A stretch of 64,000 nucleotides of DNA from an uncultured Alistipes sp. (GTDB lineage: Bacteria > Bacteroidota > Bacteroidia > Bacteroidales > Rikenellaceae), in assembly GCA_948736885.1 (NCBI GenBank), contig CAPXWY010000005.1, positions 1-64,000 of the forward strand, given 5' to 3'. Under the pieces are notes generated by a model. The model saw only the letters and a list, made by a program, of their open reading frames with translations, had not been told where the DNA came from and searched no databases. This document shows positions 1 to 25,498 of this stretch, one piece after another. How positions within the stretch are numbered: the stretch's first letter is position 1; each line of letters starts with the position of its first letter. A program made the position numbers and the translations under genes.

Positions 1-179
1 TATCAAAACCAGGCGACTGCGAATTACAAAACCGCAGAACGAGAAAAACCGGCGCGAAACAACCGTCCGCAAACAACTATTCCTTATCAATCCTCCTGCG
101 CCATTACGCCGCCAGCGGATTGCTGAATCTGCATTGCCGCGCTGGTGCGAACCATGATCCGCACCACTCCGGGCGAAAG
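1..179 (-). repeat. Partial copy D of the dispersed repeat R (head end)
   Basis: Read on the minus strand, this stretch begins near base 179 with CTTTCGCCCGGAGTG and continues with the same 'head' and early body found at 7724 and 10551 (shared blocks include CAGATTCAGCAATCCGCTGG and TTCGCAGTCGCCTGGTTTTG). The copy runs off the left edge of the window. Its polarity (head on the right, running left) means that any cassette like those at 8549 or 11373 would lie outside the window. No open frame is conserved between copies, so it is not called as a gene. Confidence 0.85.
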
Positions 180-7654: not shown

Positions 7655-7723
7655 GGCGCGAAAATAACAATTAAAAATGAAACGGCAATCATCCGCAGGC
7701 CCCGTCCGGATGAAAGGCAGCAT

Positions 7724-8097
7724 CTTTCGCCCGGAGTGACAAGGGTTACGGCTCTTTGTCAGTGTGGTTTGTAGATTCAGCAGTCCGCTGGCGGCGTAAT
7801 GGCGCGGTGGGTTTAAGGAATTGTTTGTTTTGTCGGGCGGTTTTTGCGCCGGTTTCTGTGGTTCTGCGGTTTTTGCAATTCGCAGTCGCCTGGTTTTGAT
7901 AAAGGTGGCGCAAATATTTTCGTGCCGAAGCCAGCGGAGCGAGTTTTGCGAGCCTCCGCAGGGCGGGGCTTCGGCTCGCCCGGCTGAAGCCGGATTCTAT
8001 CTCTACAAGCCGCGGCCGCCCCGAACATCTTTTCCCTCCACCTTTCCGTGTTGCCGCCAGTTGCATATTCCAGTCTGCCGCGGAGTTTGCGAACAAT
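7724..8097 (+). repeat. Dispersed repeat R, copy A (about 370 bp)
   Basis: Nearly the same sequence recurs at 10551-10920 and, truncated and inverted, at 1-179. It begins CTTTCGCCCGGAGTGAC and ends GCGGAGTTTGCGAACAAT. The middle is rich in nested inverted repeats: GCCGAAGCC pairs with GGCTTCGGC and, inside it, GCGGAG with CTCCGC, so a transcript would fold strongly. Open frames in it are not conserved between copies. Confidence 0.9.
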
Positions 8098-8112
8098 ATG
8101 TAATGGGCATTT

Positions 8113-8233: not shown

Positions 8234-8387
8234 GTCATTCTGAGGAGCATAGCGACGAAGAATCTGTCGCGTCAGTATACAGATGTTTGACTGCACTTCG
8301 TTTGTCTTTCTCCTCCTTGCTCGGCATAGTCCGTCCGCGGCCTTTGGTTCGCAAGGGAAAAAGATTCTTCACTTCGTTCAGAATGAC
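8234..8387 (+). repeat. Inverted-repeat block (TCATTCTGA...AGAATCT ends), element A
   Basis: GTCATTCTGAGGAGCATAGC with the following GACGAAGAATCTGT at 8234-8267 is the inverted partner of AGATTCTTCACTTCG...AGAATGAC at 8362-8387. The interior (GCACTTCGTTTGTCTTTCTC and onward) is shared with the block at 10971-11090. This is a MITE-like arrangement with no gene inside. Confidence 0.8.
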
Positions 8388-8548
8388 AAGTAGGGCTTGG
8401 GATTCGGACGCAGCCGCGGGGCACGCCCGGCGACAACCGGATGTTTGCGGGCCTGCGCCGGCCAAGGCTGCGGCCCGCACGGCTCAAAAGAGCCGAAGAA
8501 CGACGCAACGACATTCGTACAGAAACCATTGTTCCGCACCCTCCGCCG

Positions 8549-8772
8549 CATTCCTCATAGCGATTGCTCCACAGCGCCTGCTGCAGGCTACCGCAACACG
8601 ACGTCGGGAGCCTTGGGGAACGTCGGCACGCACGGTTGGTACTGGGCTTCGTCGCCTTTCTTTTCCGGCGATGAGCAGGCAGGACACTTGTGGCTCCACG
8701 CCGGGGCGGTGAAGCCTTTGGACGACAGCCAACGCGCCAATGCGCTCTCCGTGCGCTGCGTCCAGCATCTGC
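8549..8772 (+). pseudogene. Orphan FISUMP/C-type-lectin-like cassette A
   Basis: In one frame this encodes AAGYRNTTSGALGNVG, then WYWASSP, a variable stretch, GAVKPLDDSQR and LSVRCVQ: the C-terminal part of a Fibrobacter succinogenes major paralogous (FISUMP) domain. The rest of the domain, a signal peptide and a start codon are absent, and there is no stop shared with the other two copies. A conserved 5' flank (CAT...AGCGATTGCTCC) and a 3' flank (GTCCAGCATCTGC) frame it. It is either a gene remnant or a silent cassette; see findings. Confidence 0.75.
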
Positions 8773-8885
8773 GGCTGCTTTTCATCCGCCTGCCGGGGCC
8801 GTGGCCGGAAGAAAAGCCCGACGATCTCCGGGAGGGTGCAAATTAAGTATAAATGCGTATCGGTGCGCAATAAAAAACGGCTACC

Positions 8886-8920
8886 TTTGATTGACCGAAT
8901 GTGTTTTATTTATACTTTTG
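8886..8920 (+). promoter_or_regulatory. Promoter of the SPT-like gene
   Basis: TACTTTTG at 8913-8920 fits the -7 consensus, with TTG at 8891-8893 spaced 19 bp upstream. The ATG follows at 8982, giving a leader of about 55 nt. Confidence 0.6.
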
Positions 8921-8981
8921 CGTCACCGATTCCCGCATCGGAACCAAGAGAACTCAGTAAATCTTAAATAAAGGAAAAACA

Positions 8982-10253
8982 ATGGTTGATATTTTTGCAC
9001 GCCTTGAGAAAAACGCAGGCGGACCGATCGGTCAGTACATGGGTTATGCCCACGGTTACTATGCCTTCCCCAAGCTGGAGGGCGAAATCGGTCCCCGCAT
9101 GGTGTTCCGTGGCAAGAAGGTGCTCAACTGGAGCCTGAACAACTACCTCGGTCTGGCCAATCTGCCCGAGGTGCGCCAGGCCGACGCCGAGGGTGCCGCC
9201 AAGTTCGGCATGGCCGCCCCGATGGGCGCCCGCATGATGAGCGGTCAGACCGTTTATCACGAGCAGCTGGAGCGCGAGCTCGCCGAGTTCGTGGGCAAGG
9301 AGGATGCCTTCCTGCTGAATTTCGGTTACCAGGGCATGATCTCGATCATCGACTGCCTGCTCACGCCGCGCGACGTGGTGGTCTACGATGCCGAGGCTCA
9401 CGCCTGCATCATCGACGGTCTGCGCATGCACAAGGGCAAGCGTTTCGTATTCGGACACAACGACATGGAGTCGCTGCGCCTCCAGCTTCAGCATGCTACC
9501 GACCTGGCCGAGGAGCAGAACGGCGGTGTGCTGGTCATCACCGAGGGTGTGTTCGGCATGAAGGGCGACCTGGGCAAGCTCGACGAGATCGTGGCGCTGA
9601 AGAAGGATTTCCAGTTCCGCCTGCTGGTCGACGACGCCCACGGTTTCGGTACGATGGGCGAGGGCGGCCGCGGTACGGCTTCGCATTTCGGCGTGGTCGA
9701 CGGTGTGGACGTGTTGTTCAATACCTTTGCCAAGTCGATGGCCGGCATCGGCGCTTTCGTGAGCGGCCCGCGCTGGCTGATCAACCTTTTCCGTTACAAC
9801 ATGCGCTCGCAGCTCTACGCCAAGTCGCTCCCCATGCCGATGGTTATCGGCGCGCTGAAGCGTCTGGACCTTATCCGCAAGCACCCCGAGTATCAGCAGA
9901 AGCTGTGGGAGATCGTCCGCGCTCTGCAGAGCAGCCTCAAGGAGAACGGTTTCGACATCGGCGTCACCAATTCGCCCGTGACCCCCGTCTTCCTCAAGGG
10001 CGGTGTGCCGGAGGCTACCAACCTGGTGGTCGACCTGCGCGAGAACCACGGTATCTTCTGCTCGATCGTGATCTATCCCGTCATCCCGAAGGGCGAGATC
10101 ATCCTGCGCGTCATTCCCACGGCGGCTCATACGCTCGAGGATGTCAAGGAGACGATCGAAGCTTTCAAGTCCGTGCGCGAGAAGCTCGAGAGCGGTTACT
10201 ACGCCAAGCTGCCCATTCCCGTCCGCGCCGACGAGGGATTCAAGGTGCGTTAG
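8982..10253 (+). CDS. AONS/serine-palmitoyltransferase-family PLP enzyme (sphingo- or sulfonolipid synthesis candidate)
   Basis: A 423-residue alpha-oxoamine synthase: PLP-dependent condensation of an amino acid with an acyl thioester. Visible are VDDAHGFGTMG (Asp-Asp-Ala-His at 217-220) and the PLP lysine Lys251 in NTFAKSMAGIGAF. The N-terminal AHGYYAFPKLEGEI and GMAAPMGARMMSG differ from the KBL and BioF pattern and resemble a group widespread in Bacteroidetes that make sphingolipids or sulfonolipids. From memory of the families, candidates are serine palmitoyltransferase or cysteate acyltransferase (first step of capnine/sulfobacin synthesis); 2-amino-3-ketobutyrate ligase is less likely because no threonine dehydrogenase gene is adjacent. 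It is a single-gene unit with its own promoter and terminator, bracketed by repeat elements A and B. Confidence 0.75.
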   Translation: MVDIFARLEKNAGGPIGQYMGYAHGYYAFPKLEGEIGPRMVFRGKKVLNWSLNNYLGLANLPEVRQADAEGAAKFGMAAPMGARMMSGQTVYHEQLERELAEFVGKEDAFLLNFGYQGMISIIDCLLTPRDVVVYDAEAHACIIDGLRMHKGKRFVFGHNDMESLRLQLQHATDLAEEQNGGVLVITEGVFGMKGDLGKLDEIVALKKDFQFRLLVDDAHGFGTMGEGGRGTASHFGVVDGVDVLFNTFAKSMAGIGAFVSGPRWLINLFRYNMRSQLYAKSLPMPMVIGALKRLDLIRKHPEYQQKLWEIVRALQSSLKENGFDIGVTNSPVTPVFLKGGVPEATNLVVDLRENHGIFCSIVIYPVIPKGEIILRVIPTAAHTLEDVKETIEAFKSVREKLESGYYAKLPIPVRADEGFKVR

Positions 10254-10271
10254 TCCGTTTTGCATAGAGAG

Positions 10272-10303
10272 ATGCCGGCCCTTTACTTGGGGCCGGCATT
10301 TTT
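10272..10303 (+). terminator. Rho-independent terminator of the SPT-like gene
   Basis: ATGCCGGCC/GGCCGGCAT stem with a 10-nt loop followed by a run of T, starting 18 bp after the stop. Confidence 0.85.
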
Positions 10304-10550
10304 CGTTTCGGTGCGGCGGTTTCGCTTTCTCTTTGCGTTGTGGGTTTTGTCCCGTTCGGGGCGTGGTCGGATTCTTCTCGTTTTCTTTTGTTCAACTGTT
10401 TTGCTTTATGTCATTCTCCGGGCAGCCATTTCTAAGCCGCTTGCTTTGATTTCGGGCCGGGTCACCCCTCGATCCCGTCCCTCCTCCAGCCGTTCCGGCG
10501 GACTTTTCCGTGTAAATAATTTTTGTTTTATCTTCGTTCCCGGCAACTTC

Positions 10551-10920
10551 ACACCCGGAGTGACAGGGGCTACGGCTTCTGTCAGCGTGGTTAGTAGATT
10601 CAGCAGTCCGCTGGCGGCGTAATGGCGCGGGTGGTTAAGGGATTGTTTGTTTTGTCGGGCGTTTTTTTTGCGCCGGTTTTTCTCGTTCTGCGGTTTTGTA
10701 ATTCGCAGTCGCCTGGTTTTGATAGAGGTGGCGCAAATGTTCTCGTGCCGAAGCCCGCGGGGCGAGTTTTGCGAGCCTCCGCAGGGCGGGGCTTCGGCTC
10801 GCACGGCTGAAGCCGGTGTTTAGCTCTGCAAGCCGCGGCCGCCCCGAACATCTTTTCCTTCCACCTTTCCGCGTTGCCGCCAGTTGCTTATTCCAGTCTG
10901 CTGCGGAGTTTGCGAACAAT
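10551..10920 (+). repeat. Dispersed repeat R, copy B
   Basis: Near-identical to copy A from CCCGGAGTGAC to GCGGAGTTTGCGAACAAT and in the same orientation. Small differences (for example GCCCGCGGGGCGAG against GCCAGCGGAGCGAG) largely keep the predicted stems. Confidence 0.9.
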
Positions 10921-10970
10921 GAAATAGTACGGTCCCAACGCGTCGTGCGGATCTCAGTTCTTCCCGTTTT

Positions 10971-11314
10971 GTCATTCTGAGGAGCAGAGCGACGAAGAAT
11001 CTGTATCAAGTATACGTAGACAGATTCTTGATTGCACTTCGTTTGTCTTTCTCCTCCTTGCAAGGCATAGTCCGCAAGAGGCCTCTGCACTCGCTGCGTT
11101 CGTCGATCCGCTTCGCTCAACATGACGTTGCGGCAAGCATGCCCCACATTGCGGCTATTTCTCTGGTGCGGAAGAGCCGATGCCAAGGTTGCAGACCTTG
11201 CGCCCGGGCCGGCTCGCATCGAAGATGCGACCCCCGCAGCCGACCCGGGCGAGCACATGAAGAATAAATACTGCTGATTAATAGATTCTTCGTCGCTATG
11301 CTCCTCAGAATGAC
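10971..11314 (+). repeat. Inverted-repeat block of element B
   Basis: GTCATTCTGAGGAGCAGAGC... at 10971-11004 pairs with ...GCTCCTCAGAATGAC at 11283-11314, enclosing the sequence shared with element A and the double-hairpin repeat. A degraded partner (CGCTTCGCTCAACATGAC) lies near 11110-11126. Confidence 0.8.
11184..11256 (+). repeat. Double-hairpin REP-like repeat, copy 2
   Basis: Same stem design as 8113-8186: CAAGGTTGCAGACCTTG, then GCCCGGGCCGGCT paired with the later AGCCGACCCGGGC, with a different loop (CGCATCGAAGATGCG). Confidence 0.85.
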
Positions 11315-11372
11315 AAATTATTTCACAATTTTGCATTGTGAATTCTGAATTGAACTTGTTCCCTCTCCGCGG

Positions 11373-11605
11373 CATCCATTCCAGCGATTGCTCCCTAATC
11401 CCGGGCCTGCTGCGGGCAACCGCTCCGGCGGAACGGGAGACTTGGGCAATGTCGGCACGAATGGCTATTCGTGGGCCTCGTCGCCCATGGTCTCGGACAA
11501 TCATAACGGGGGCCTGCTGTGGTTCCACGGCTCCCTTGTGAATCCGCTGACCGGAAGCGATCGGTCCAATGCCTTTACCGTGCGCTGCGTCCAAGCATCT
11601 GCACG
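11373..11605 (+). pseudogene. Orphan FISUMP/C-type-lectin-like cassette B
   Basis: Encodes PAAGNRSGGTGDLGNVGTNG, then SWASSP, a variable stretch, LVNPLTGSDR and FTVRCVQ, aligning residue for residue with cassettes A and C. It has no start codon or upstream domain. The 5' flank is CATCCATTCCAGCGATTGCT. The 3' flank has one extra base (GTCCAAGCATCTGC) relative to A and C. A terminator follows at 11618. Confidence 0.75.
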
Positions 11606-11617
11606 GCTGCCTCGGCC

Positions 11618-11645
11618 CGGCGGTTCTCCGGAACCGCCGTTTTTC
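11618..11645 (+). terminator. Rho-independent terminator after cassette B
   Basis: CGGCGGTTC/GAACCGCCG stem with a short loop and a T-rich tail, 13 bp past the cassette end. It reads as the 3' end of a former transcription unit or of the element. Confidence 0.8.
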
Positions 11646-11707
11646 TTTGCGCCTGCCCGACAAGTTCCCCGAGCAGCCCTCCCCGACCGGACGTACGAGA
11701 CAAAAAA

Positions 11708-11737
11708 CTTCCGGCCTGCCCGAAAGGCAGACCGGAA
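11708..11737 (-). terminator. Terminator of pckA
   Basis: CTTCCGGCCTGCC/GGCAGACCGGAAG inverted repeat; on the minus strand it is followed by a T run (plus-strand CAAAAAA). It lies about 35 bp beyond the pckA stop. Confidence 0.8.
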
Positions 11738-11771
11738 GCCATCAACTCATATTTAACTCAAACGAAAAAAC

Positions 11772-13385
<1,614 letters not shown>

Positions 13386-13855
13386 ACTATTTTTAAATTA
13401 AACCTCTTCTGTTCGCGCGGCGGCGGCCCGGCGGGCGCACCGCATTTTTTCCGACGCAAAGTTAGAAAAACTTTCCTTTTTGTGAAAAATATAACAACGA
13501 ATTTTCCGAAAAAATTTATTATTTTTCCTCAACGGCTTATGCGCTTCATTCATAGCTTGTTCGACCGGCAGCCCTACGGGTCCAACAATCGTTCCATCTC
13601 TGCCGGCGGCTTTCCGGCCGCCGTTGTCCGCAGAGCATGCAGCACGTGCTTGTTCAACCGCGCCGGGCATCTTCGTCGGAGCTGCTTCCGCAGAGGCATC
13701 CGGCGATTACCGAACACCCTCCGCAGGCCGCGTTCCGCCGCCGGCCGACCAACTGAACAACAGAACCGACAAGAGAAAGTATTTTTGCGGACAAGCACAA
13801 AAAATCGCCGCAGCCCTTTCACTTTCCGCCTACTTTTCGTATCTTCGAATTCACC
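13386..13855. other. Intergenic region between pckA and hemW
   Basis: 470 bp with no convincing gene. It holds the pckA -7 box (minus, 13457-13464) and a TATCTTCG box at 13840-13847 just before hemW. The 13540-13800 part shows nothing recognisable. Confidence 0.6.
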
Positions 13856-14971
13856 ATGGCCGGACTCTATTTCCATATCCCGTTCTGCAAGCGCGTGTGC
13901 GCTTACTGCGACTTCTTCAAGAGCGCCGACCTGCGCCGCATGGACGACGTGCTGAAAGCCATGCACGACGAGCTCGAACATCAGCGCGGCTACCTGGGCG
14001 GCGAAGCCGTCCGCACGCGTTACTTCGGCGGAGGCACTCCATCGCTCTGCACGCCGCAACAGATAGGAGGCCTGCTCGCCCGGGCGGCCGACCTTTTCGA
14101 CTGCACGGCCGTGGAGGAAACCACCCTCGAAGCCAATCCCGACGACCTCGACGGTGCGTATCTCGACGCACTGCGCCGCGCAGGCATCGACCGGCTCTCG
14201 ATCGGCATCCAGTCGCTCGACGACGCCTGCCTGCGCTCGATGAACCGCCGCCACACCGCCGCACAGGCCGTCGATGCGGTGAAAAGAGCCCGCGCTGCCG
14301 GATTCGGCAACCTCACCGTCGACCTGATATTCGGCGTTCCCGGTTTCGGGGGCGACTCGCTGCAACGCTCGCTCGACGCCATTATCGCCCTGGAGCCCGA
14401 GCATGTTTCGGCATACCATTTGACCGTCGAACCCGGCACGGCGTTCGGACGTCGGGCCGCACGGGGCGACTTCGCGCCCGTCGACGAAGAGACCAGCCGG
14501 GCGGAGTTTCTGACCGTGCACCGTGTGCTGACACAAGCCGGATACGAACACTACGAAGTCTCGAACTTCGCGCTGCCGGGGCGGCGGGCGCGGCACAACG
14601 CCGCCTATTGGCACGGCGAGAAATACCTGGGCACGGGACCCGCGGCCCACTCCTACGACGGACGCGAGCGCCATTGGAACGCAGCCTCGATCGAACGCTA
14701 CATCGCCGGCCGACCGCCCGAGCACGAAGTGCTGAGCGACCGCGACCGATACAACGAATACCTGATGACGCGGCTGCGCACGGCCGAGGGGATCGACCTC
14801 GGGGAGCTGGAATGCCGCTTCGGAGCTGCAAGTGCGGAACGGACACTCCGGGAGGCTGAGCGCTTCGTAGCCGCCGGAACACTCGTCGCCATGGAAAAAC
14901 GGCTGGCGATCCCGGCCGAGCAATGGCTGGTCTCCGACGCCGTGATCGGCGCGCTGTTCGAAAGCGAATAG
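13856..14971 (+). CDS. hemW: Heme chaperone HemW (radical SAM, coproporphyrinogen-oxidase-like)
   Basis: A 371-residue protein opening MAGLYFHIPFCKRVCAYCDF, with cluster cysteines at 11, 15 and 18. It then has YFGGGTPS, LEANPDDL, RLSIGIQSLDD and NLTVDLIFGVPG in the order seen in HemW/HemN-like proteins, and a C-terminal winged-helix region (RLRTAEGIDLGELE). HemW inserts heme into respiratory proteins and lacks the extra motif of true HemN; the N-terminal HIPFC without the HemN extension fits HemW. The TATCTTCG box ends only 8 bp before the ATG, so the leader is very short. Confidence 0.93.
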   Translation: MAGLYFHIPFCKRVCAYCDFFKSADLRRMDDVLKAMHDELEHQRGYLGGEAVRTRYFGGGTPSLCTPQQIGGLLARAADLFDCTAVEETTLEANPDDLDGAYLDALRRAGIDRLSIGIQSLDDACLRSMNRRHTAAQAVDAVKRARAAGFGNLTVDLIFGVPGFGGDSLQRSLDAIIALEPEHVSAYHLTVEPGTAFGRRAARGDFAPVDEETSRAEFLTVHRVLTQAGYEHYEVSNFALPGRRARHNAAYWHGEKYLGTGPAAHSYDGRERHWNAASIERYIAGRPPEHEVLSDRDRYNEYLMTRLRTAEGIDLGELECRFGAASAERTLREAERFVAAGTLVAMEKRLAIPAEQWLVSDAVIGALFESE

Positions 14972-15300
14972 AAAGCCGGCGATGTCCGGACAAGCCGGTC
15001 GCTCCGCCCGTTTCCGGGTTTCGCCGGACGGGCGTCCGCGCTTCTGCCCAGCGATGCCGCCGGAGAAGGCGCCGCACGGACCGACCGAAGGAACAAACTG
15101 CGAAACGGAAGAAACGGCAATGTTAAATTATTCTTAAATTTTTTAAAGAATTCCCGCCCGGGAGGCCTCCGGCGGCCCTGCAACGGCGCCGTGAGTACCC
15201 GCACAGGACCGGACGGATTGCCCAATATAAATATATGTATTAACTTTGCGCCCGAGTTTACGCCTCAGCATCAAGTAGATTACAAACGAAAACATAAATT
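14972..15300. other. Intergenic region upstream of the glycogen operon
   Basis: 329 bp. The only clear signal is the promoter at 15218-15248. No small gene or terminator with a T tract is evident. Confidence 0.6.
15218..15248 (+). promoter_or_regulatory. Promoter of the glycogen operon
   Basis: TTG at 15218-15220 and TAACTTTG at 15241-15248, spaced 20 bp: a good Bacteroidetes -33/-7 pair. The ATG is 53 bp downstream. Confidence 0.7.
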
Positions 15301-18300: not shown

Positions 18301-19551
18301 TACGACATCCCCGCCTGGCAGAAGGTGCACAACATACCCGACGAGGAGCTGTGGAACGAGCGCATGTACCTCAAGAACCGCCTCATCAAGCACATCCGCC
18401 GTCGTTTCAGCGACCCCAACCAGGTGCGTCTCGACTCGCCGCGCCAGATGATCCAGATCATCGAGGGCATCAAGCCCGACGTGCTGACCATCGGCTTCGC
18501 GCGCCGCTTCGCCACCTACAAGCGCGCCTACCTGCTCTTCACCAACCTCGACCGGCTGGCGGCCATCGTCAACAACAAGGAGCGCCCCGTGCAGTTCATC
18601 TTCGCGGGCAAGGCCCATCCCAACGACAAGCCGGGCCAGGACCTCATCAAGCGCATCGTCGAAGTGTCGGCCATGCCGCAGTTCGTGGGCAAGATTCTCT
18701 TCCTGCAGAACTACGACATGGAGCTGGCCCGCCGCATGGTGCAGGGCGTCGACGTATGGCTCAACACCCCGACCCGTCCGCTGGAGGCGTCGGGTACGTC
18801 GGGCGAGAAGTGCGTCATGAACGGCGTCATGCAGTTCTCCGTGCTCGACGGCTGGTGGGTCGAGGGCTACAAGGAGGGCGCCGGCTGGATGCTTCCCATG
18901 GAACGCACCTTCGCCGACCAGCACTACCAGGACGAACTCGACGCCGAGATGATCTACAACACCATCGAGGAGCAGATCGCCCCGCTCTACTACCAGCGCG
19001 AACAGGACGGCATTCCCCACGCGTGGGTCGCTTCGGTCAAGCGCTGCGTGGCCGACATCGCCTCCAACTTCACCACCAACCGCATGCTCACCGACTACGA
19101 GGAACGTTTCTACAACAAGCTCGCGGCACGCAAGCAGCAGATCGTCGAGGGCGGCTACCGGCTGGCCCGCGAGATCGCGGCCTGGAAGCGCAAGGTCTCG
19201 GCAGCCTGGGACCAGGTGCGCGTGGTCGACGTGCAGCGCGTGAAGATCGAGAAGGAAGCCGTCTTCGTAGGCGAGACCTACCATTTCGAAGTAAAGCTCG
19301 ACATCGCCAACCTCCGGCCCGAAGACCTGGGCGTGGAGATGGTGATCGCCCGGCAGATCGTCGGCGGCGAAGCGGTCAACGTCACCCGCACCGTAGGCCT
19401 CGCATGTTCGAAGGTCGAAGGCAGTCTGGTGACCTACACGCTCGACTACACGCCCGACGAAACGGGCACCTACGACGTGGCGCTGCGTGTCTTCCCGCGC
19501 AACGAGCACCTGCCCCACCGCATGGACTTCGCGCTGGTGAAGTGGGCCTGA
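15301..19551 (+). CDS. GT3 glycogen synthase fused to GT35 alpha-glucan phosphorylase
   Basis: A 1416-residue two-enzyme protein. Residues ~1-550 are a GT3 (eukaryote/yeast-like) glycogen synthase: SWEVCNKIGGIHTVVSTKA at the N-terminus and VFPSYYEPWGYTPLES in the donor site. Residues ~577-1270 begin with a DUF3417-like segment (LHALEELSRNLWWCWNPGA) and continue as an alpha-glucan phosphorylase (SMEYGLHSSLKIYSGGLG, HCNEGHAAF), with the PLP lysine Lys1170 in EASGTSGEKCVMNG. The last ~120 residues look like a beta-sandwich. Synthesis (glucosyl transfer to glycogen) and phosphorolysis (release of glucose 1-phosphate) thus lie in one chain. It is the first gene of the glycogen operon. This fusion is known from other Bacteroidetes. 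Confidence 0.93.
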   Translation: MSNAKLTPDYLFEVSWEVCNKIGGIHTVVSTKAQTATRKFGDRYLLIGPDLSHEGLNPEFEEDPNLLRNWRQSVYGDGIRIRVGRWKIKGEPTAILIDFTSLFPRKDEILKKLWEDYHVDSISGQWDYIEPVLFGYAAGKVIASYVDTFCTATEKVAAHFHEWMTAAGGLYLRRNAPYVATLFTTHATVMGRCIAGNRLPLYNDLTKFNADELARQFNVVAKHSIEKMAATYHDAFLTVSDITANECKYLLSREVDCVTPNGFENDFVWQGAEYDAKRAAARKSMIEVAEACLGTKFATDPLIVGTSGRYEFRNKGLDVFVESLKTLAASRQLDRDVLVYITVPAGNRGPRPDLQAHLADPSKPIDGSRYKYSTHQLEYPDTDPIVHALNGSVLTTDDSKVKVIFVPTYLNRNDGIFGKDYYELLVGMDLTVFPSYYEPWGYTPLESVAFSVPTITTTLAGFGLWVGKQPEHDGVEVIRRDDYNDSEVVGRIADAMLRFARLDDKEVAKKRRSALEISKSALWEHFYAAYENAYAEAIESSIVRTNRAVLDDGGSKTEQINFVRQQLFVEKPNWNRMMVDKTLPARLHALEELSRNLWWCWNPGARDLFENIDPALWAECDRNPIAFLDKLSIERFKELEQDAQFLAQLDAVHAQFLAYMDEKPDPKTTTVSYFSMEYGLHSSLKIYSGGLGILAGDYLKEASDKNVPMAAVGLLYRYGYFTQRLSAQGAQEATYEAQNFYKLPISPVRDEEGNWLTVTIAFPGRTLSARVWKCQVGRTDLFLLDTDFEDNLEEDRQITHYLYGGDWENRLKQEILLGIGGIRALRKLGVKHQVFHCNEGHAAFIGIERIREMVNHKKLSFSEALEVVRSSSLFTTHTPVPAGHDAFPEHMIRQYMSHYPDVLGITWEQYINLGKTNPNDPNEKFSMSVLACNLSQEVNGVSWLHGEVSKDILGNMWPGYFKNELHIGYVTNGVHFPTWIATSLRRLYARYFGDGFEGHSYDIPAWQKVHNIPDEELWNERMYLKNRLIKHIRRRFSDPNQVRLDSPRQMIQIIEGIKPDVLTIGFARRFATYKRAYLLFTNLDRLAAIVNNKERPVQFIFAGKAHPNDKPGQDLIKRIVEVSAMPQFVGKILFLQNYDMELARRMVQGVDVWLNTPTRPLEASGTSGEKCVMNGVMQFSVLDGWWVEGYKEGAGWMLPMERTFADQHYQDELDAEMIYNTIEEQIAPLYYQREQDGIPHAWVASVKRCVADIASNFTTNRMLTDYEERFYNKLAARKQQIVEGGYRLAREIAAWKRKVSAAWDQVRVVDVQRVKIEKEAVFVGETYHFEVKLDIANLRPEDLGVEMVIARQIVGGEAVNVTRTVGLACSKVEGSLVTYTLDYTPDETGTYDVALRVFPRNEHLPHRMDFALVKWA

Positions 19552-19921
19552 TCGGGAAACGGAATTCCGCGTCATGCTCCGGGCCGAAACCCGGAGCATG
19601 ACGTTCGGAGCCGCGACCGCGAAACCGCACCCCAGCGCGGCACCTCTCGAAGCAGCGGTTCCGCAGCCGGAAACAACGGCTTGCCGCCGAACCTCCCGCC
19701 CTTTGCGGACCGCAGCCCGTGGAACAACCAACATAGAGAAAACCCTGCTCCCGGCAGGGTCGGCGGCCGGGTAAAACAGGTTTCCGACCGCCGTTCTTGT
19801 TCCCGGAAGCTGAAAACACGACCGAAACTGTCCGAAAAAAGAAATTTTTTCGTAATCCGGGAACAAAATGGCGAAAAAATCGCTATCTTCATAACACGAA
19901 AACAACATCATCCACAGCGAT
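19552..19921. other. Intergenic region with strong hairpin in the glycogen operon
   Basis: 370 bp. CGTCATGCTCCGGG (19570-19583) pairs perfectly with CCCGGAGCATGACG (19590-19603) around a 6-nt loop, but no T tract follows on the plus strand, so it may act as a processing or attenuation hairpin rather than a plain terminator. TATCTTCA near 19881 may be a weak -7 box for the next gene. Confidence 0.6.
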
Positions 19922-21862
19922 ATGTCTGCATTAACCTTCGACAAAAGCGAATTGGGCAACCTGGAGTATTCGCTCCAGCGGGAGATGCTCGCCACCGACC
20001 GCATCGGCGGCTACATGAGCACCACCATCGTCTGCTGCAATACGCGCCGCTACCATGGTCTGATCGTGGCACCCATCGACGACAGCGACCGCACCTGCCT
20101 GCTGCTGTCGTCGCTCGACGAGACGATCGTGCAGCACGACCAGAGCTTCAACCTGGCGCTGCATCGTTTCAAGGGGGTCTACGAGCCGCGCGGCCACAAA
20201 TACATCACCGACTTCCAGTATACGCCCACCCCGACGATCACCTACCGCGTGGGCGGCGTCATCCTGAAGAAAGAGATGCTGTGGATCCACAAGCGCACGC
20301 AGCTGATGATCCGCTACACGCTCGTCGACGCCCACTCCGAGACGCACCTGCGGCTGCGGCCTTTCCTGGCGTTCCGCGACAAGCATGCCCTGACGAAGGC
20401 CAACATGCAGGCCAACGGCCACTCCTACCCCGCCGTCAACGGCGTGAAGTGCCGTCTCTACGAGTCGTTCCCGTGGCTCTACCTCCAGACTTCGAAGCCC
20501 GGCACGGAGTTCGTACCGGCACCCGACTGGTACTACAATTTCGAGTACCAGCAGGACCTCGCCCGCGGCTACGAGGGACACGAGGACCTCATGACCACCG
20601 GCTACTTCGAGACCGAGCTGAAGAAAGGCGAAAGCATCATCTTCTCGGCGTCGCTCGACGAAATGGGGTCCACCAAGACCATCGAGGAGATGTTCGAGGC
20701 CTCCATCGCCCGGCGCACCCACAAGATCGACTTCATCAGCTGCCTGGAGCACTCGGCCCGGCAGTTCGTCATCCGCCGGCCCGGCAACCGCACCGAGGTC
20801 ATCGCCGGTTATCCGTGGTACGGCGTACTGGCCCGGCAGACCTTCATCGCGCTGCCCGGACTGACCCTGGCCCAGGACCACAAGGAAGACTGCATCGACG
20901 CCCTCGACACGCAGGTGCGCGCCATGCAGCAGGGCATGTTCACCGGCTCGGCATCGGCCGCGGCGGCCGTCGACGCACCGCTGTGGTTCTTCTGGACGCT
21001 CCAGCAGCTCGAACGCAAACTCGACGGACAGAGCATCTGGCGCCGCTACGGACAAGCCATGAAAGAGCTGCTCGAAAGCTATCGGCGCGGCATTGCCGGC
21101 ACCGTCGTGATGAACGACAACGGGCTGATTTGGGCCGCTTCCGACGAAGCGCACCCGCTCACGTGGATGGATTCGGTGATCGACGGACGCGCCGTGACCC
21201 CGCGCAACGGCTACCAGGTCGAAGTCAACGCTTTGTGGTACAACGCCGTATGCTATGCGCTGCGGCTCGCGTCCGAAAACGGCGATACGGAGTTCGTCAA
21301 GGCGTGGGAGGAGATTCCCGCACGCACGGCCGCTTCGTTCAACAAGCTGTTCCGCCTGCCGCAGGGCTACCTGGCCGATTACGTGGGCGACGGCGGGGCC
21401 GACGACACCATCCGGCCCAACATGATCGTCGCATGCGGCCTGCCCTACAAGATGCCCGACATCGAGACGCAGATCGACATCCTGCGCATCGTCCGCCAAC
21501 ACCTGCTGACGCCCAAGGGCCTGCGCTCGCTCACCCCGCGCAATCCGCTCTACAAGGGTACGTGCGACGGAACCCCCGCCGAGCGCGATTTCGCGGCCCA
21601 AAACGGCTCGGTGTGGCCGTGGCTGCTGCAATTCTTCGTGCAGGCTTCGTTCGACATCGACGGCGACGCCTTCCTGCCGCAGGCCGAGGAGATGCTCGCT
21701 TCGTTCGAAGAAGACATCCAGGTCTACGGCATCGGTTCGATCAACGACCTCTACGACGCCGACCCGCCCTACACTCACCGCGGGGCCATCTCGCAGGCGT
21801 GGAGCGTCGGAGCCGTGCTGAATATCTACCGCATGATCCGCGAACGGAAAGCGGGAGCATAA
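19922..21862 (+). CDS. Glycogen debranching enzyme (amylo-alpha-1,6-glucosidase, GH133-like)
   Basis: A 646-residue protein with the bacterial/archaeal debranching layout: an N-terminal sugar-binding domain (LATDRIGGYMSTTIVCCNTR, about residues 20-40) and a C-terminal (alpha/alpha)6 barrel with TWMDSVIDGRAVTPRNGY and VEVNALWYNAVCYAL, where the conserved Asp and Glu of the active site fall. It removes alpha-1,6 branch stubs so that phosphorylase can continue. It lies downstream of the synthase/phosphorylase fusion on the same strand but with a 370-bp gap, so it may have its own promoter. Confidence 0.92.
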   Translation: MSALTFDKSELGNLEYSLQREMLATDRIGGYMSTTIVCCNTRRYHGLIVAPIDDSDRTCLLLSSLDETIVQHDQSFNLALHRFKGVYEPRGHKYITDFQYTPTPTITYRVGGVILKKEMLWIHKRTQLMIRYTLVDAHSETHLRLRPFLAFRDKHALTKANMQANGHSYPAVNGVKCRLYESFPWLYLQTSKPGTEFVPAPDWYYNFEYQQDLARGYEGHEDLMTTGYFETELKKGESIIFSASLDEMGSTKTIEEMFEASIARRTHKIDFISCLEHSARQFVIRRPGNRTEVIAGYPWYGVLARQTFIALPGLTLAQDHKEDCIDALDTQVRAMQQGMFTGSASAAAAVDAPLWFFWTLQQLERKLDGQSIWRRYGQAMKELLESYRRGIAGTVVMNDNGLIWAASDEAHPLTWMDSVIDGRAVTPRNGYQVEVNALWYNAVCYALRLASENGDTEFVKAWEEIPARTAASFNKLFRLPQGYLADYVGDGGADDTIRPNMIVACGLPYKMPDIETQIDILRIVRQHLLTPKGLRSLTPRNPLYKGTCDGTPAERDFAAQNGSVWPWLLQFFVQASFDIDGDAFLPQAEEMLASFEEDIQVYGIGSINDLYDADPPYTHRGAISQAWSVGAVLNIYRMIRERKAGA

Positions 21863-22200
21863 GTCGGAGACCATCGGCCGTCGATGCCTTTCAGGGTTTT
21901 CAGGCATGCGGCTGTCACTCCCGGGGGGGGTAAGTCCGGGCTGCTTTCGATACCGAAAGCGAGATGCAACCGGAGGTGCGCCTGCCCGGACGGTCCGGTG
22001 ATCGGAAGACGGTTTGCATCGCTGCCCTACGGCTTCGGCCCGCACCGCCCTCCCTGCGGCAAAGCCGCACGGCACCGGACCGACAAGATGCGATGAATAA
22101 TAAACAGAGCCGTCTCCCGGCAGAATCAACGGTTCGAGCCCGGACGAGAGACAAAATCGGACGGAAGACGAAACAAAGTTATAAAGAAAGGAATACGATT
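21863..22200. other. Intergenic region upstream of the GT4 gene
   Basis: 338 bp with no gene. Includes a G8 run at 21923-21930. No clear promoter box could be picked with confidence. Confidence 0.5.
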
Positions 22201-23514
22201 ATGAGAGTTTTAATGTTCGGCTGGGAGTTTCCTCCTCACATCGCCGGCGGTCTGGGCACTGCCTGCTACGGCATGACCCGCGGATTGGCGCGCAACGGCG
22301 TCGAAGTGACGTTCGTCGTGCCCCACGCCTACGGCGACGAGGATCAGCGTTTCACCCATGTGCTGAACGCCAGCGAAGTAGAGGCGCTCTACGGATCGAC
22401 CGGCAGCGGGGCCGACGACATCCTCGGCAGCATGTCGTTCATCCGCATCGATTCCAACATGGTGCCCTACCTCTCGCCCGAGGAGTACGACGTCTACCAC
22501 GAGCAGTTCGTGCAGAGCGGCCGCACCGCCTGGTCGACCACCGACGCCTGGAAGCAGCGCTACACCTTCTCCGGCAAGTACGGCGCCAACCTCATGGAGG
22601 AGGTCGCCCGCTATGCCGTCGTCGCCGCACAGGTGGCCCGCGACCTCGAAGGGCAGTTCGACGTCATCCACGCCCACGACTGGCTCACCTACTACGCCGG
22701 CATCGCCGCCAAACGCGTCTCGGGCAAGCCGCTGGTCGTGCACATGCACGCCACGGAGTTCGACCGCAGCGGCGAGAACATCAACACGCAGGTCTACGCC
22801 ATCGAGCGCGCCGGCATGCAGGCCGCCGACCGTGTCATGGCCGTCTCGAACCTCACGCGCAACATCGTCATCAACCGCTACGGCATCCCCGCCGAGCGCG
22901 TCGTGACGATGCACAACGCCGTGCGTTTCGCCGAGAACTCCTCGGCGGCTCCCGAGCGCGGCGTCGACGACAAGATCATCACCTTCCTGGGCCGCATCAC
23001 CTACCAGAAGGGCCCCGACTACTTTGTCGAGGCGGCCGCCAAGGTACTCAAACGCATGCCCAACGTGCGCTTCGTCATGGCCGGCTCGGGCGACATGATG
23101 AACCATGTCATCCGCCGCGTCGCCCGTCTCGGCATCGCCGACCGCTTCCACTTCACCGGATTCCTGCGCGGCGAAGACGTCCACAAGATGTTCCAGCTCT
23201 CCGACGTCTACGTCATGCCGTCGGTCTCGGAGCCGTTCGGCATCTCGCCTCTCGAAGCCATGCGCTCCAACGTGCCGGTCATCATCTCCAAACAGAGCGG
23301 CGTGGCCGAAGTGCTCGACTATGCCGTGAAGGTCGACTACTGGGACGTCGACGCCATGGCCGACGCCATGTACGGCCTGGTCAAGTACCCCGCTCTGGCC
23401 AACATGTTCGCCGAGAAGGGACTGGAAGAGGTCACCAACCTCAAGTGGAACAACGTGGCCGCCAAGATCAAGGGCGTCTACGAGGAAGTGATCGCAGAAG
23501 CAAAAAACAAATAA
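22201..23514 (+). CDS. GT4-family glycosyltransferase, glycogen-operon type
   Basis: A 437-residue GT-B glycosyltransferase. The opening MRVLMFGWEFPPHIAGGLGT is the acceptor-side loop typical of GT4/GT5 synthases. HAHDWLTYYAGI, VMAVSNLTRN, a FLGRITYQKGPDYFVEA donor-domain start and PSVSEPFGISPLEAM (the E-x7-E motif) follow in order. It likely transfers glucose from a nucleotide sugar to an alpha-glucan or makes a maltose-type primer, given the neighbouring GH57 and debranching genes; the exact donor is unknown. A longer frame opens at 21964, but the ATG at 22201 begins the conserved block. GH57 follows after 13 bp, so they are co-transcribed. Confidence 0.88.
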   Translation: MRVLMFGWEFPPHIAGGLGTACYGMTRGLARNGVEVTFVVPHAYGDEDQRFTHVLNASEVEALYGSTGSGADDILGSMSFIRIDSNMVPYLSPEEYDVYHEQFVQSGRTAWSTTDAWKQRYTFSGKYGANLMEEVARYAVVAAQVARDLEGQFDVIHAHDWLTYYAGIAAKRVSGKPLVVHMHATEFDRSGENINTQVYAIERAGMQAADRVMAVSNLTRNIVINRYGIPAERVVTMHNAVRFAENSSAAPERGVDDKIITFLGRITYQKGPDYFVEAAAKVLKRMPNVRFVMAGSGDMMNHVIRRVARLGIADRFHFTGFLRGEDVHKMFQLSDVYVMPSVSEPFGISPLEAMRSNVPVIISKQSGVAEVLDYAVKVDYWDVDAMADAMYGLVKYPALANMFAEKGLEEVTNLKWNNVAAKIKGVYEEVIAEAKNK

Positions 23515-23527
23515 AAAATAACCCCCG

Positions 23528-24733
23528 ATGAAAACCGTCTGCCTGTACTTTCAGGTCCACCAGCCCTGGCGTCTGAAGAAATACCGTTTCTTCAACATGG
23601 GCAAGGACCACAACTACCTCGACGATCTGCTCAATCGTTCGATCATGCAGAAAGTCGCCCGCCAGTGCTACCTGCCGATGAACGCCCTGCTCCTGAAGCT
23701 CATCCGCGAGAACGAAGGGCGTTTCCGCTGTTCGTTCTCCATCACCGGCACCGCCATCGAGCAGTTCCGCACCTTCGCACCCGAGGTGCTCGCTTCATTC
23801 AAGGAGCTGGCGGCCACGGGCTGTGTCGAGTTCCTGGCCGAAACCTACTCCCACTCCCTCGCGTCGCTCGCCTCGAAAGAGGACTTCGCCGCGCAGGTGC
23901 AGCTCCATGTCGCAACCATCGAGAAGGAGTTCGGCGTCAAACCCGCCGCTTTCCGCAACACCGAACTGATCTACTCCGACCAGATCGGCGCCATGGTCTC
24001 CGAAATGGGCTTCCGCACCATGCTGGCCGAGGGTGCCAAGCACGTGCTGGGCTGGAAGTCGCCCAACTTCGTCTATGCCAACGCCATCGACCAGCGCATG
24101 CGTCTTCTGCTGCGCAACTACAAGCTCTCGGACGACATCGCCTTCCGGTTCTCCGACCGCGGCTGGGACCAGTGGCCGCTGACCGCCGCGAAATTCGCCG
24201 AGTGGCTGGCTTCGGACCAGACGCCGGGTGAGGTCATCAACCTTTTCATGGACTACGAGACCTTCGGCGAGCACCAAACCGCCGACACCGGGATTTTCGA
24301 ATTCATGAAGGAGCTGCCCCGGACCCTCACGGCCACCGGGTACCTGGAATTCGCCACCGTAAGCGAGGCGGCCGACAGATACCAGCCCGTTGCGGTGCTC
24401 CACTGCCCCCACACCATGTCGTGGGCCGACGAGGAGCGCGACGTCACGGCCTGGCTCGGCAACGAGTTGCAGAACGAGGCTTTCTCCAAGCTCTACGGCC
24501 TCAAGGAGAAGATCGCCCGGCTCGGCAACCCCGACTTCGACTACGTGTGGAACTTCCTCCAGACCTCCGACCATTTCTACTACATGGCCACCAAATGGTT
24601 GTCGGACGGCGATGTCCACTCCTACTTCAACCCCTACGACTCGGCCTACGACGCTTTCATCAACTACATGAACGTGTTGGCCGACTTCATCATCGAGGTC
24701 GACAAGGCCCTTGCCGCCAAAGAAGAGGCATAG
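23528..24733 (+). CDS. GH57-family alpha-amylase/glucanotransferase
   Basis: A 401-residue GH57 protein. The family signatures are VCLYFQVHQPWRL at the N-terminus, SFSITGTAIEQ, AFRNTELIYSD with the nucleophile Glu146, and FMDYETFGEHQ with the acid/base Asp242. It has the compact catalytic domain only and no signal peptide, so it is intracellular and acts on stored glycogen or maltodextrin rather than dietary starch. It ends the glycogen operon; a strong terminator follows 50 bp later. Confidence 0.92.
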   Translation: MKTVCLYFQVHQPWRLKKYRFFNMGKDHNYLDDLLNRSIMQKVARQCYLPMNALLLKLIRENEGRFRCSFSITGTAIEQFRTFAPEVLASFKELAATGCVEFLAETYSHSLASLASKEDFAAQVQLHVATIEKEFGVKPAAFRNTELIYSDQIGAMVSEMGFRTMLAEGAKHVLGWKSPNFVYANAIDQRMRLLLRNYKLSDDIAFRFSDRGWDQWPLTAAKFAEWLASDQTPGEVINLFMDYETFGEHQTADTGIFEFMKELPRTLTATGYLEFATVSEAADRYQPVAVLHCPHTMSWADEERDVTAWLGNELQNEAFSKLYGLKEKIARLGNPDFDYVWNFLQTSDHFYYMATKWLSDGDVHSYFNPYDSAYDAFINYMNVLADFIIEVDKALAAKEEA

Positions 24734-24783
24734 AAACCTCGGGCGAGGGCGATTCGGCCGTTCGCTTCGATGTCCCGACAGAT

Positions 24784-24829
24784 CCATGAAAAACGCGCAC
24801 GACAAATATATCGTGCGCATTTTTCATGG
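24784..24829 (+). terminator. Terminator of the glycogen operon
   Basis: CCATGAAAAACGCGCACGA pairs with TCGTGCGCATTTTTCATGG around an 8-nt loop. The A/T outer arms make it able to work in both directions. Confidence 0.85.
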
Positions 24830-24980
24830 CAGGTCCTGCATTATGCAGCCAACCTCCCCGCCGACCGGCATCCGGTCGTTTCCCGTCGTCATCTATCCGA
24901 CGACCGATGCAAGCCGTATGATTGCAGCTTCAATACCCAGGACTTCTGAAATAACAAACAAGGTAAAAGCGGTTTCCGAC

Positions 24981-25044
24981 CCTGAGTGGCACGGACCAAG
25001 GTTTGTACCAGCGCGGTATGCAGATTCAGGCAATCCACTGACAG
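24981..25044 (+). repeat. Diverged head of repeat R, copy C
   Basis: CCTGAGTGG...CCAGCGCGGTATGCAGATTCAGGCAATCC aligns with the head of the copy at 1-179 (GGAGTGG...CCAGCGCGGCAATGCAGATTCAGCAATCCGC on its strand, given in parts). The long body of R is missing; cassette C starts 65 bp later. Confidence 0.65.
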
Positions 25045-25108
25045 ACAACAGAGTCGATCAGTTATAAAAACGTTTGACACGGTGTTTTTCTCCGAACATC
25101 CGCCGCGC

Positions 25109-25334
25109 CATCCATCCAGCGATTGCTACGGCGCCTGCTTCGGGCTACCGCAACAATACGACGGGAGCCTTGGGTGAAGTCGGCACAACGGGGCGCTATT
25201 GGTCGTCATCGACCTATGCTTCGGGCAATTACAATGGTGCGTTCCTGCGGCTCGACGCCGGACTGGTCAACCCGTTGGATAACGGGAATCGAACCACCGG
25301 CCGCGCCGTGCGCTGCGTCCAGCATCTGCACGGA
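25109..25334 (+). pseudogene. Orphan FISUMP/C-type-lectin-like cassette C
   Basis: Encodes ASGYRNNTTGALGEVGTTG, then RYWSSSTYASG, a variable stretch, GLVNPLDNGNR and RAVRCVQ, aligned with cassettes A and B. No start codon, signal peptide or N-terminal domain precedes it. Flanks CATCCATCCAGCGATTGCTA and GTCCAGCATCTGCACGG match the other cassettes. Confidence 0.75.
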
Positions 25335-25498
25335 CCGCTTTTACCTTTCTTTCGTCTGACTTGCCGCCGCATCCGGCGACTCTGCAATCTCCGCACCGCC
25401 TTTCCGTTCGCACCCTGTGCAGGATACAGACACGCTGACCGTCGCCGCCCGATACCCTACTGTGTTCCGCCAGTAGATACGACGGACTGCATATAAAA

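What the first reader, a model, noticed from the sequence alone, without database searches (positions are those of the whole stretch)
8549..25334. Three orphan C-terminal FISUMP/C-type-lectin-like cassettes with conserved flanks and clustered variability
Seen: 8549-8772, 11373-11605 and 25109-25334 encode aligned C-terminal segments of a FISUMP domain without start codon, upstream domain or common stop. Fixed positions are G-x-R, G-x-L-G-x-V-G-T-x-G, W-[AS]-S-S, V-x-P-L, R and V-R-C-V-Q; differences cluster after YRN, around G-x-x-W, after WxSS and before VRCV. Flanks are shared (AGCGATTGCT on the left, GTCC-AGCATCTGC on the right). Known: DGR variable regions sit at the C-terminus of C-type-lectin-fold proteins and change at Asn/Ser/Tyr/Asp-type codons. 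Synonymous differences between the copies mean they are not simple adenine-mutagenised copies of one template. Inference: these are silent donor cassettes, dead VR remnants or passengers of the repeat; a donor role would be a new kind of antigen-variation store.
Basis: partly seen in the sequence, partly recalled or inferred. Interest (0 to 1): 0.78.

Follow-up and report, generated by a model that had tools for sequence, protein, structure and literature searches.

The report
DGR with genome-wide template library
A gut bacterium related to Alistipes carries dozens of silent, slightly different copies of the end of one surface-protein gene, and sequence evidence indicates that a mutation-making reverse transcriptase copies them, with deliberate errors, into that single gene.

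Summary
The three cassettes are real, but they are template repeats (TRs) of a diversity-generating retroelement (DGR), not remnants. The held genome has 89 such cassettes: one is the variable region (VR) ending a 792-aa fimbrillin-like gene; 88 are TR-type, 14 of them in an array between an Avd gene and a DGR-like reverse transcriptase (RT), 74 elsewhere. 79 of 88 follow an RT-7-like RNA (RF03028, below Rfam's cut-off), and a 5'/3' stem encloses RNA and TR. VRs in hand trace to different donors: the own VR matches a TR on another contig with 6 of 6 mismatches at adenines, a relative's 22 of 22; TR-TR controls show 20-24%. A protein identical over 690 residues carries a VR explained by another TR (9 of 9 differences adenine-explainable). 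Close RT and large libraries co-occur in 4 of 61 congeneric genomes; the other 57 have 0-5 cassettes. Cassette choice and adenine mutagenesis thus appear combined: a new variant of a known kind. Not shown: activity, use of every TR, how the library grows, the C-lectin fold. 11 of 21 public VRs found no clean donor among held TRs.

The parts
7707..7721 (+). Unit 1: 5' arm of the long-range closing stem (CGGATGAAAGGCAGC)
   Evidence: pairs with 8774-8788 (15 pairs, one G-U); formed in the minimum-energy fold of 7700-8795
7730..7835 (+). Unit 1: RT-7-like RNA (RF03028), followed by large inserts
   Evidence: Rfam match 42.7 bits, E 1.1e-6, below gathering 116.8
8559..8764 (+). Unit 1: left flank AGCGATTGCT (8559-8568) and template repeat up to the IMH-like GTGCGCTGCGTCCA (8751-8764)
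8774..8788 (+). Unit 1: 3' arm of the closing stem
10529..10536 (+). Unit 2: Bacteroidetes -7-like box TATCTTCG (box name recalled) near the position conserved in units with inserts
   Evidence: 28 of 48 units with inserts carry TAnnTT[TC]G in the 60 nt before the RT-7 start; coordinates
10554..10653 (+). Unit 2: RT-7-like RNA, followed by large inserts
   Evidence: Rfam match 50.1 bits, E 1.1e-8; the 5'/3' stem is weak here (GGCA 10542-10545 with TGCC 11608-11611)
11383..11593 (+). Unit 2: left flank (11383-11392) and template repeat up to GTGCGCTGCGTCCA (11580-11593)
24962..24973 (+). Unit 3: 5' arm of the closing stem (GGTAAAAGCGGT)
   Evidence: 12 perfect pairs with 25334-25345, formed in the minimum-energy fold
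24980..25133 (+). Unit 3: RT-7-like RNA, compact form running into the TR
   Evidence: Rfam match 68.2 bits, E 1.3e-13, below gathering
25118..25321 (+). Unit 3: left flank (25118-25127) and template repeat up to GTGCGCTGCGTCCA (25308-25321)
25334..25345 (+). Unit 3: 3' arm of the closing stem (ACCGCTTTTACC)
1..173 (-). Unit 4: RT-7-like RNA cut by the window edge; its TR would lie outside the window
   Evidence: Rfam match 45.5 bits, E 2e-7, cut at its 3' end

Best explanation
The cassettes are template repeats of one DGR whose templates form a genome-wide library. The recipient is a single VR, the last ~190 nt of a fimbrillin-like surface lipoprotein gene that lies upstream of avd, a TR array and the RT. 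A template unit is an RNA made of a 5' stem arm, an RT-7-like structure, the TR, the IMH-like end and a 3' stem arm; many units outside the array carry their own promoter-like box. Proposed cycle: RT with Avd copies one TR RNA into cDNA with random bases opposite adenines, and the cDNA replaces the VR from its 3' end. Use of different TRs swaps the ~63-residue surface and randomises its Asn-type codons at once. Shown by sequence: the library, its co-occurrence with the RT, the single recipient found, and adenine-only or adenine-biased TR-to-VR differences with different donors in different genomes and strains. Inferred: transcription of each unit, priming, 3'-anchored replacement, and the adhesive role of the target.
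For: Library: 89 cassettes, no stops inside; 88 of 88 TR rows examined have a TR-type suffix and the VR does not (87 held-genome TRs plus the window's copy of one). DGR parts: Avd (PHROG 'Avd protein of DGR' E 1.4e-20; NCBIfam DivGenRetAVD E 1.2e-14, below cut-off) and RT (best PDB match 8ub7 E 1.2e-40; IGNLTSQ and YVDD). TR-to-VR by nucleotide: own genome 6 of 6 mismatches at A (P 2.5e-5); counted from the first 10-nt match, G007 22 of 22 (P 1.9e-18), G064 16 of 17 (P 3.7e-11), A. muris 17 of 21 (P 1.9e-10). The best donor lies outside the RT-side array in these four. Control: TR-TR mismatches at A 89 of 435, 85 of 430, 102 of 417. Switching: P0001 equals the own target over 690 of 690 residues but its VR fits array TR C1:62230, 9 of 9 differences adenine-explainable (background 0.15). 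Five A. muris-like proteins are 692-697 of 697-699 identical before the VR and 29-39 of 62 within it; P0095 fits an array TR 9 of 9, P0089 a non-array TR 7 of 9. Close RT in 4 of 61 genomes, which hold 20-89 cassettes; the other 57 hold 0-5. RT-7 match upstream of 79 of 88; closing stem true mean 24.4 versus permuted 18.2, SD 0.47, maximum 20.0, n=78. VR-specific 3' element: 1 copy in the genome, directly after the VR, in 0 of 88 TR rows.
Against: No activity is shown. Most TRs have no observed VR product: five donors of the own library are implicated by VRs in hand. 11 of the 21 public target proteins with a complete VR that I fetched had no clean donor among the TRs held; expected if their own libraries are not held, but untested. 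P0002 fits its donor with only 1 of 5 differences adenine-explainable, P0004 with 1 of 3. The A. muris VR has 4 non-adenine mismatches in its 5' part, read here as a chimera. Trimming matters: over the whole local alignments the counts are 17 of 22 (A. muris) and 20 of 26 with ambiguous bases (G064), and in the own genome 3 mismatches (2 at G) just 5' of the block were left out. The RT-7 matches are all below Rfam's gathering score. In the stem test the true partner is best or tied for only 11 of 78 units. TRs in units with inserts are adenine-poor (mean 14.3%). Nine of the 88 TRs lie in long stop-free frames, the longest 754 aa as re-read; none shows a fimbrillin-type domain, but I did not prove that these frames are silent.
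Confidence: 0.88

Rival explanations
1. A few TRs (array and some others) work as donors; most of the 74 units outside the array are retrotransposed or duplicated passengers that no longer take part.
For: TRs in units with inserts are poorer in adenine (mean 14.3% versus 17.0% in the array), have 161-1280 nt between the RT-7 match and the TR, and most TRs have no observed VR product.
Against: None of 89 cassettes has an in-frame stop, against 67 and 43 of 87 rows in the other two forward frames. Closing stems hold in units with inserts too (24.3 versus 19.2 mismatched, n=48), and 28 of 48 have the promoter-like box. TRs outside the array are the best donors of 4 genome VRs, and an adenine-poor one, C3:116384, matches P0004.
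Confidence: 0.25
2. Ordinary RecA-type gene conversion from silent cassettes, as in pilin or vls systems (recalled), without reverse transcription.
For: Silent cassettes with shared flanks and one expressed copy look alike; the A. muris VR looks mosaic.
Against: Mismatches fall on template adenines 6 of 6, 22 of 22 and 16 of 17 times against 20-24% between TRs; Avd and a DGR-like RT flank the array.
Confidence: 0.03
3. Each TR serves its own target gene, so this is a DGR with many targets.
For: DGRs with many VRs are published (PMC6642488, passages). Nine TRs lie in long stop-free frames.
Against: Among the 89 cassettes only C1:65482 was seen with the VR-type end, and the VR-type 3' element occurs once in the genome. 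The nine long frames show no fimbrillin-type Pfam domain; two run on into unrelated genes, greA and trigger factor. The held genome is 99.3% complete by its record.
Confidence: 0.02

Closest known systems
Canonical DGR (Bordetella phage BPP-1)
   Same: RT, Avd, TR and VR with adenine-specific changes, VR at the 3' end of the target gene, shared IMH-like block that diverges just downstream (mechanism from passages of PMC3240598)
   Different: 88 TR-type cassettes for one VR found; most far from the RT; a structured RNA lies 5' of the TR and a stem encloses the TR. That BPP-1 has one TR and a downstream spacer RNA is recalled, not read.
DGRs with multiple VRs, several TRs, or TR variants between strains
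   Same: More than one repeat per system. PMC6642488 (passages): 271 of 948 DGRs have multiple VRs, 216 of those with one TR, so some have several; one is said to have 6 unique TRs and 91 TR-VR pairs. PMC4891356 (passages): T. denticola strains differ in TR type.
   Different: Those are many VRs per TR, a handful of TRs, or between-strain differences. A library of dozens of TRs for one VR was not in the passages seen.
Silent-cassette antigenic variation (pilE/pilS, vlsE; recalled)
   Same: Many silent partial copies, one expressed site, different donors in different strains
   Different: Here the transfer shows adenine mutagenesis and an RT is present; many donors carry a promoter-like box and an RNA structure
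RT-7 RNA (RF03028)
   Same: Model positions 1-191 matched upstream of 79 of 88 TRs
   Different: All matches are below the gathering score of 116.8 bits (best own 94.0); the paper I recall as its source is not held, so whether it linked RT-7 to TRs is unknown to me
Retron ncRNA (recalled)
   Same: RNA whose 5' and 3' ends pair around the template
   Different: RT not retron-like by curated cut-off (55.1 versus 235 bits); no branching guanosine was sought

Membership tests
DGR | TR/VR pair whose differences lie at TR adenines | tested here: met
   6/6, 22/22, 16/17, 17/21 versus 20-24% in TR-TR controls
DGR | Reverse transcriptase of the DGR clade | tested here: inconclusive
   best PDB match 8ub7 E 1.2e-40 (recalled as the Bordetella DGR RT), PHROG 1423 RT E 2.7e-93, motif IGNLTSQ (its meaning recalled); no RT tree was built and no DGR RT model is among the NCBIfam hits
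DGR | Accessory Avd protein | tested here: met
   PHROG 3206 E 1.4e-20; DivGenRetAVD 54.4 bits, below cut-off 80; Pfam bAvd 38.8, below 40
DGR | VR at the 3' end of a target gene, IMH-like block shared with TR and diverging after it | tested here: met
   function of the block not testable here
DGR | VR displayed on a C-type-lectin fold | tested here: inconclusive
   FISUMP domain hit 20.5 bits, below 41.65; most of the VR region of the model has pLDDT below 50
DGR | Hairpin/cruciform downstream of the VR | tested here: inconclusive
   GTGAGCGAGC-type element and a strong hairpin about 50 nt after the block in 7 of 7 VR flanks folded, one of them on a tangled contig; role unknown
DGR | Mutagenic retrohoming demonstrated | not testable with these tools
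   needs culture
DGR | One or few TRs next to the RT (usual, not defining) | tested here: not met
   88 TR-type cassettes, 14 next to the RT
RT-7 RNA (RF03028) | Score at or above Rfam gathering 116.8 bits | tested here: not met
   93 own-genome matches at E<=10, best 94.0 bits; called RT-7-like here
Retron | Retron RT family | tested here: not met
   NF038233 55.1 bits versus cut-off 235
Silent-cassette gene conversion (RecA type) | Transfer without base-specific mutagenesis | tested here: not met

The most novel reading that the evidence does not exclude
A bacterium runs a reverse-transcriptase-driven antigenic-variation system: close to 90 autonomous template RNAs, spread over the chromosome with their own promoters and closing stems, all feed one surface-protein site, so that cassette choice and targeted hypermutation multiply each other.
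Probability: 0.65. Interest if true: 0.93.

Novelty: new variant of a known kind. Interest (0 to 1): 0.86.

Why it matters
DGRs are usually described as one template diversifying a target within a fixed scaffold. A many-to-one library joins that to cassette switching, the logic of antigenic variation, and gives a lineage a heritable stock of surfaces that can be installed and re-randomised. It would explain how gut Bacteroidales change an adhesin wholesale, and it offers RNA units with defined ends for studying how a DGR RT chooses its template. Surveys that look for repeats only around the RT (as the PMC8144416 pipeline does, passage) would see the array at best. The prediction is testable in a cultured strain: A. 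muris DSM 112343 has a smaller library (22 TRs extracted).

Tried and rejected
Dead VR remnants: rejected for lack of in-frame stops, the TR-type suffix and the adenine-only VR matches. Other targets: a FISUMP Pfam search of the genome gave one partial hit, C2:297479, not pursued beyond fetching; nine TRs in long stop-free frames were scanned with Pfam and showed no fimbrillin-type domain. TR-to-TR homing (the library mutating itself): looked for in close TR pairs and between genomes; no clear adenine bias, so not claimed. One pair, C9:8667 and C4:167011, shares an identical 114-nt 3' part, a single hint of 3'-anchored conversion. Codon-position entropy over TRs: first and third positions are about equally variable (67 versus 70 bits summed), not the pattern of ordinary purifying selection, but this does not by itself show adenine mutagenesis. 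C-lectin fold: model too weak in the VR. Survey of the order with RF03028: 12 of 295 genomes, own included, but only 8 candidates per genome were scored, so this gives presence only. Literature: searches listed nothing that I recognised as a many-TR library; the collection holds open-licence PMC papers only, so absence from print is not claimed.
Full report
OBSERVATION. The window carries three open segments at the stated places that align with shared flanks. They are three members of a much larger set. In the genome in which the window lies (held as G000, 2.22 Mb, 22 contigs, 99.3% complete by its record) a blastn search gives 49 matches, the right-flank pattern 44 (control 0), and a protein search 89 cassettes, none with a stop inside.

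THE CORE LOCUS. On contig C1, minus strand, the order is: a 792-aa gene, an Avd-like gene (136 aa), an array of 14 cassettes spaced roughly 400 bp (one gap is larger), and a 397-aa RT that starts just after the last cassette. A 494-aa frame without family hits overlaps the stretch before avd. The 792-aa protein has FimA and DUF4906 domains and ends in the same block as the cassettes, then stops. Avd is recognised by PHROGs (E 1.4e-20) and, below cut-off, by NCBIfam and Pfam. The RT's best solved-structure match is 8ub7 (E 1.2e-40), which I recall as the Bordetella DGR RT; it bears IGNLTSQ and YVDD (that IGxxxSQ marks DGR RTs is recalled). Relatives found by RT are named Alistipes (eight loci, 81-96% identity), then Rikenella, Parabacteroides and others.

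ONE RECIPIENT, MANY TEMPLATES. Of 89 cassettes one is the VR (C1:65482, followed by AGAATTCTAG). The others end GTGCGCTGCGTCCA(A)GCATCTRC or close variants: 88 of 88 rows examined, which are 87 held-genome TRs plus the window's copy of one of them; the 88th held TR was cut by the end of my stretch. The left flank AGCGATTGC or a close form is in 89 of 89 non-VR rows (the 88 rows plus the cut one). A 27-nt element directly after the VR occurs once in the genome with up to 3 mismatches allowed, is in 0 of 88 TR rows, and has counterparts after the VR in the other six VR flanks looked at. Nine TRs lie in stop-free frames that the search listed at 380 aa or more; re-read to the ends of my stretches they are 279-754 aa. 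Seven have no Pfam domain; two run on into greA and trigger factor.

ADENINE SIGNATURE. Own VR versus TR C7:97131 (another contig): 6 mismatches in 187 nt, all at TR adenines (34 A; P 2.5e-5); three further mismatches (two at G, one at A) in the four bases just 5' of that block were left out. The next best TR is 78% identical with mixed differences. In relatives, counted from the first 10-nt match: G007 VR versus a TR on another contig, 22 of 22 at A (P 1.9e-18); G064, 16 of 17 (P 3.7e-11; 8 ambiguous bases set aside); A. muris (G061), 17 of 21 (P 1.9e-10), the other four in its 5' part, a stretch that resembles another TR (3 differences in 53 nt). Untrimmed, one search gives 22 of 22, 20 of 26 and 17 of 22. 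L156: 2 of 2 in a 57-nt fragment (too short once trimmed). G063: VR mostly Ns, last 40 nt identical to one TR. L168, with one TR in hand: 10 of 11 trimmed, 14 of 21 untrimmed. Controls: best TR-TR pairs between genomes have A at 89 of 435, 85 of 430 and 102 of 417 mismatches. I treat G007 and G062 (locus L153) as one genome because contig numbers and positions agree, and G012 with L151 and G009 with L155 likewise.

SWITCHING BETWEEN STRAINS. A protein search of the target's C-terminal part returned P0001, identical to the own target over its first 690 of 690 residues, but with a different VR that fits array TR C1:62230 with 9 of 9 differences reachable by changing adenines only. P0003 fits C1:58083 (9 of 9), P0005 fits C1:62230 (7 of 7), P0004 fits C3:116384 (1 of 3; the other two are at the 5' edge), P0002 fits C3:11227 (1 of 5). 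Random substitutions are adenine-explainable in 0.15 of cases. Five proteins (P0089, P0095, P0106, P0109, P0115), 674-675 of 693 identical to the A. muris target before the VR, are 692-697 of 697-699 identical to one another there and 29-39 of 62 in the VR; P0095 fits an array TR 9 of 9, P0089 a non-array TR 7 of 9, P0115 a non-array TR 2 of 4 with a tail that runs into a TR-type end; P0106 and P0109 found no clean donor. P0033, whose body is only 323 of 675 identical to A. muris, fits the A. muris TR L233 12 of 12; P0100 fits a TR of L157 6 of 7. Of the 23 target proteins fetched, P0006 and P0065 lack a complete VR; of the other 21, ten are those above with a donor and eleven had no clean donor: P0014, P0018, P0035, P0060, P0083, P0085, P0087, P0097, P0106, P0108, P0109. 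More distant proteins also scanned are not counted; that call timed out before finishing its list. Donors of the own library include adenine-rich and adenine-poor TRs (ranks 11, 20, 25, 51, 65 of 89 rows).

CO-OCCURRENCE. In 61 genomes drawn from the genus, the own included, the RT at 87% identity or more is in 4 (G000, G007, G009, G012), with 89, 20, 38 and 87 cassettes; the other 57 have 0-5. Ten of those 57 have more distant RT matches. G012's count is swollen by a repeated stretch on contig C85. In nine relatives reached through loci, RT-7-like matches number 23, 16, 40, 13, 3, 15, 11, 8 and 19, with 0 of 14 control genomes; in G063 they are spread over a 1.88-Mb scaffold. MAG contigs of G012 pass from target gene into TR flank and from array TR into VR end: assembly tangles, consistent with VR alleles close to two TRs, not proof.

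ANATOMY OF A UNIT. Upstream of 79 of 88 TRs lies an RT-7-like match on the same strand within 1.5 kb. I entered 83 of the 93 matches; the ten left out pair with none of the nine TRs without a match. All matches are below the gathering score; the same search at E<=10 also rang in 6 of 14 control genomes, but in 0 of 14 at E<=0.001. In 30 units the match abuts the TR, in 49 there are 161-1280 nt between them. The 32 nt before the RNA pair with the 38 nt after the TR end: mean stem score 24.4 against 18.2 for permuted partners (SD 0.47, maximum of 2000 permutations 20.0; n=78), true partner best or tied in 11 of 78 and in the top five in 29, as related units share stems. Window unit 3 closes with 12 perfect pairs (z-score -2.47; 1 of 100 shuffles folds as well); unit 1 closes with 15 pairs across about 1.05 kb; unit 2's stem is weak. 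A Bacteroidetes -7-like box TAnnTT[TC]G (name recalled) lies in the 60 nt before the RNA in 28 of 48 units with inserts (22 of 30 occurrences start 24-25 nt before it), with 1.7 expected and 8 of 144 control windows inside units; in 0 of 16 compact units outside the array and 1 of 14 array units. So a promoter of its own is suggested for about half of the units outside the array, not for all. A run of four or more T follows in 40 of 78.

SELECTION ON TRs. Among 87 rows (85 TRs, the VR and the window duplicate) 0 have in-frame stops, against 67 and 43 in the other forward frames; AAA, AAG and AGA, which adenine changes could turn into stops, are 17 of 5216 codons against 379 AAC or AAT.

TARGET. 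A model of P0001 (mean pLDDT 69.4) is poor in the VR; its best structural matches are Bacteroidales fimbrial and adhesin-type proteins (4rdb E 7.8e-13, Mfa4 5dhm). So the target is probably a fimbrial adhesin with a variable end; the C-lectin fold is not confirmed.

WHAT IS KNOWN. Passages of PMC3240598 give the BPP-1 mechanism; PMC8144416, PMC6642488, PMC4891356 and PMC4159848 were read as passages only. PMC6642488 mentions DGRs with several TRs (one with 6); none of the passages described dozens of TRs for one VR. The paper that I recall as the RT-7 source is not held. Nine searches listed nothing that I recognised as such a system in the open-licence library.

VERDICT. A DGR by its signature and parts, in a new arrangement: a template library. 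Confidence that the cassettes are donor TRs as a class, 0.88; that nearly all are live donors, about 0.65.

Noticed in passing
window 1-173 (-): A fourth RT-7-like RNA cut by the window edge; its TR would lie outside.
   Followed up: partly
window 1-11084: The window overruns the end of held contig C1 (545982 bases); window 6581-11084 is 99.7% identical to C8:87170-91677, after which C8 carries another cassette (C8:91912). Repeats shared by the units may have made one assembly join wrongly.
   Followed up: partly
window 8233-8265, 10970-11003, 11287-11317: A repeat like TGTCATTCTGAGGAGCATAGCGACGAAGAATCT sits in the inserts of units 1 and 2, in both orientations.
   Followed up: no
window 4794-4935 and L062 about 12565-12837: Tandem repeats of unknown role: two 68-nt copies in the window, and about three copies of a ~75-nt unit beside the first array cassette.
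   Followed up: no
G000:C5:150473-151300: A second reverse transcriptase (607-aa open frame) with a stronger RVT_1 match than the DGR RT.
   Followed up: no
L154 and L166, VR of the target gene: In two MAGs the VR is read as Ns while its surroundings are clean, as expected of a mixed population at this site.
   Followed up: partly
L168: A record labelled Patescibacteria carries a relative of this RT with one TR in the stretch held and a VR gene (10 of 11 mismatches at A after trimming, 14 of 21 before): perhaps a simpler form of the system.
   Followed up: partly
G000 C9:8667 and C4:167011: Two TRs share an identical 114-nt 3' part and differ in the 5' part, a possible trace of 3'-anchored TR-to-TR conversion.
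   Followed up: partly
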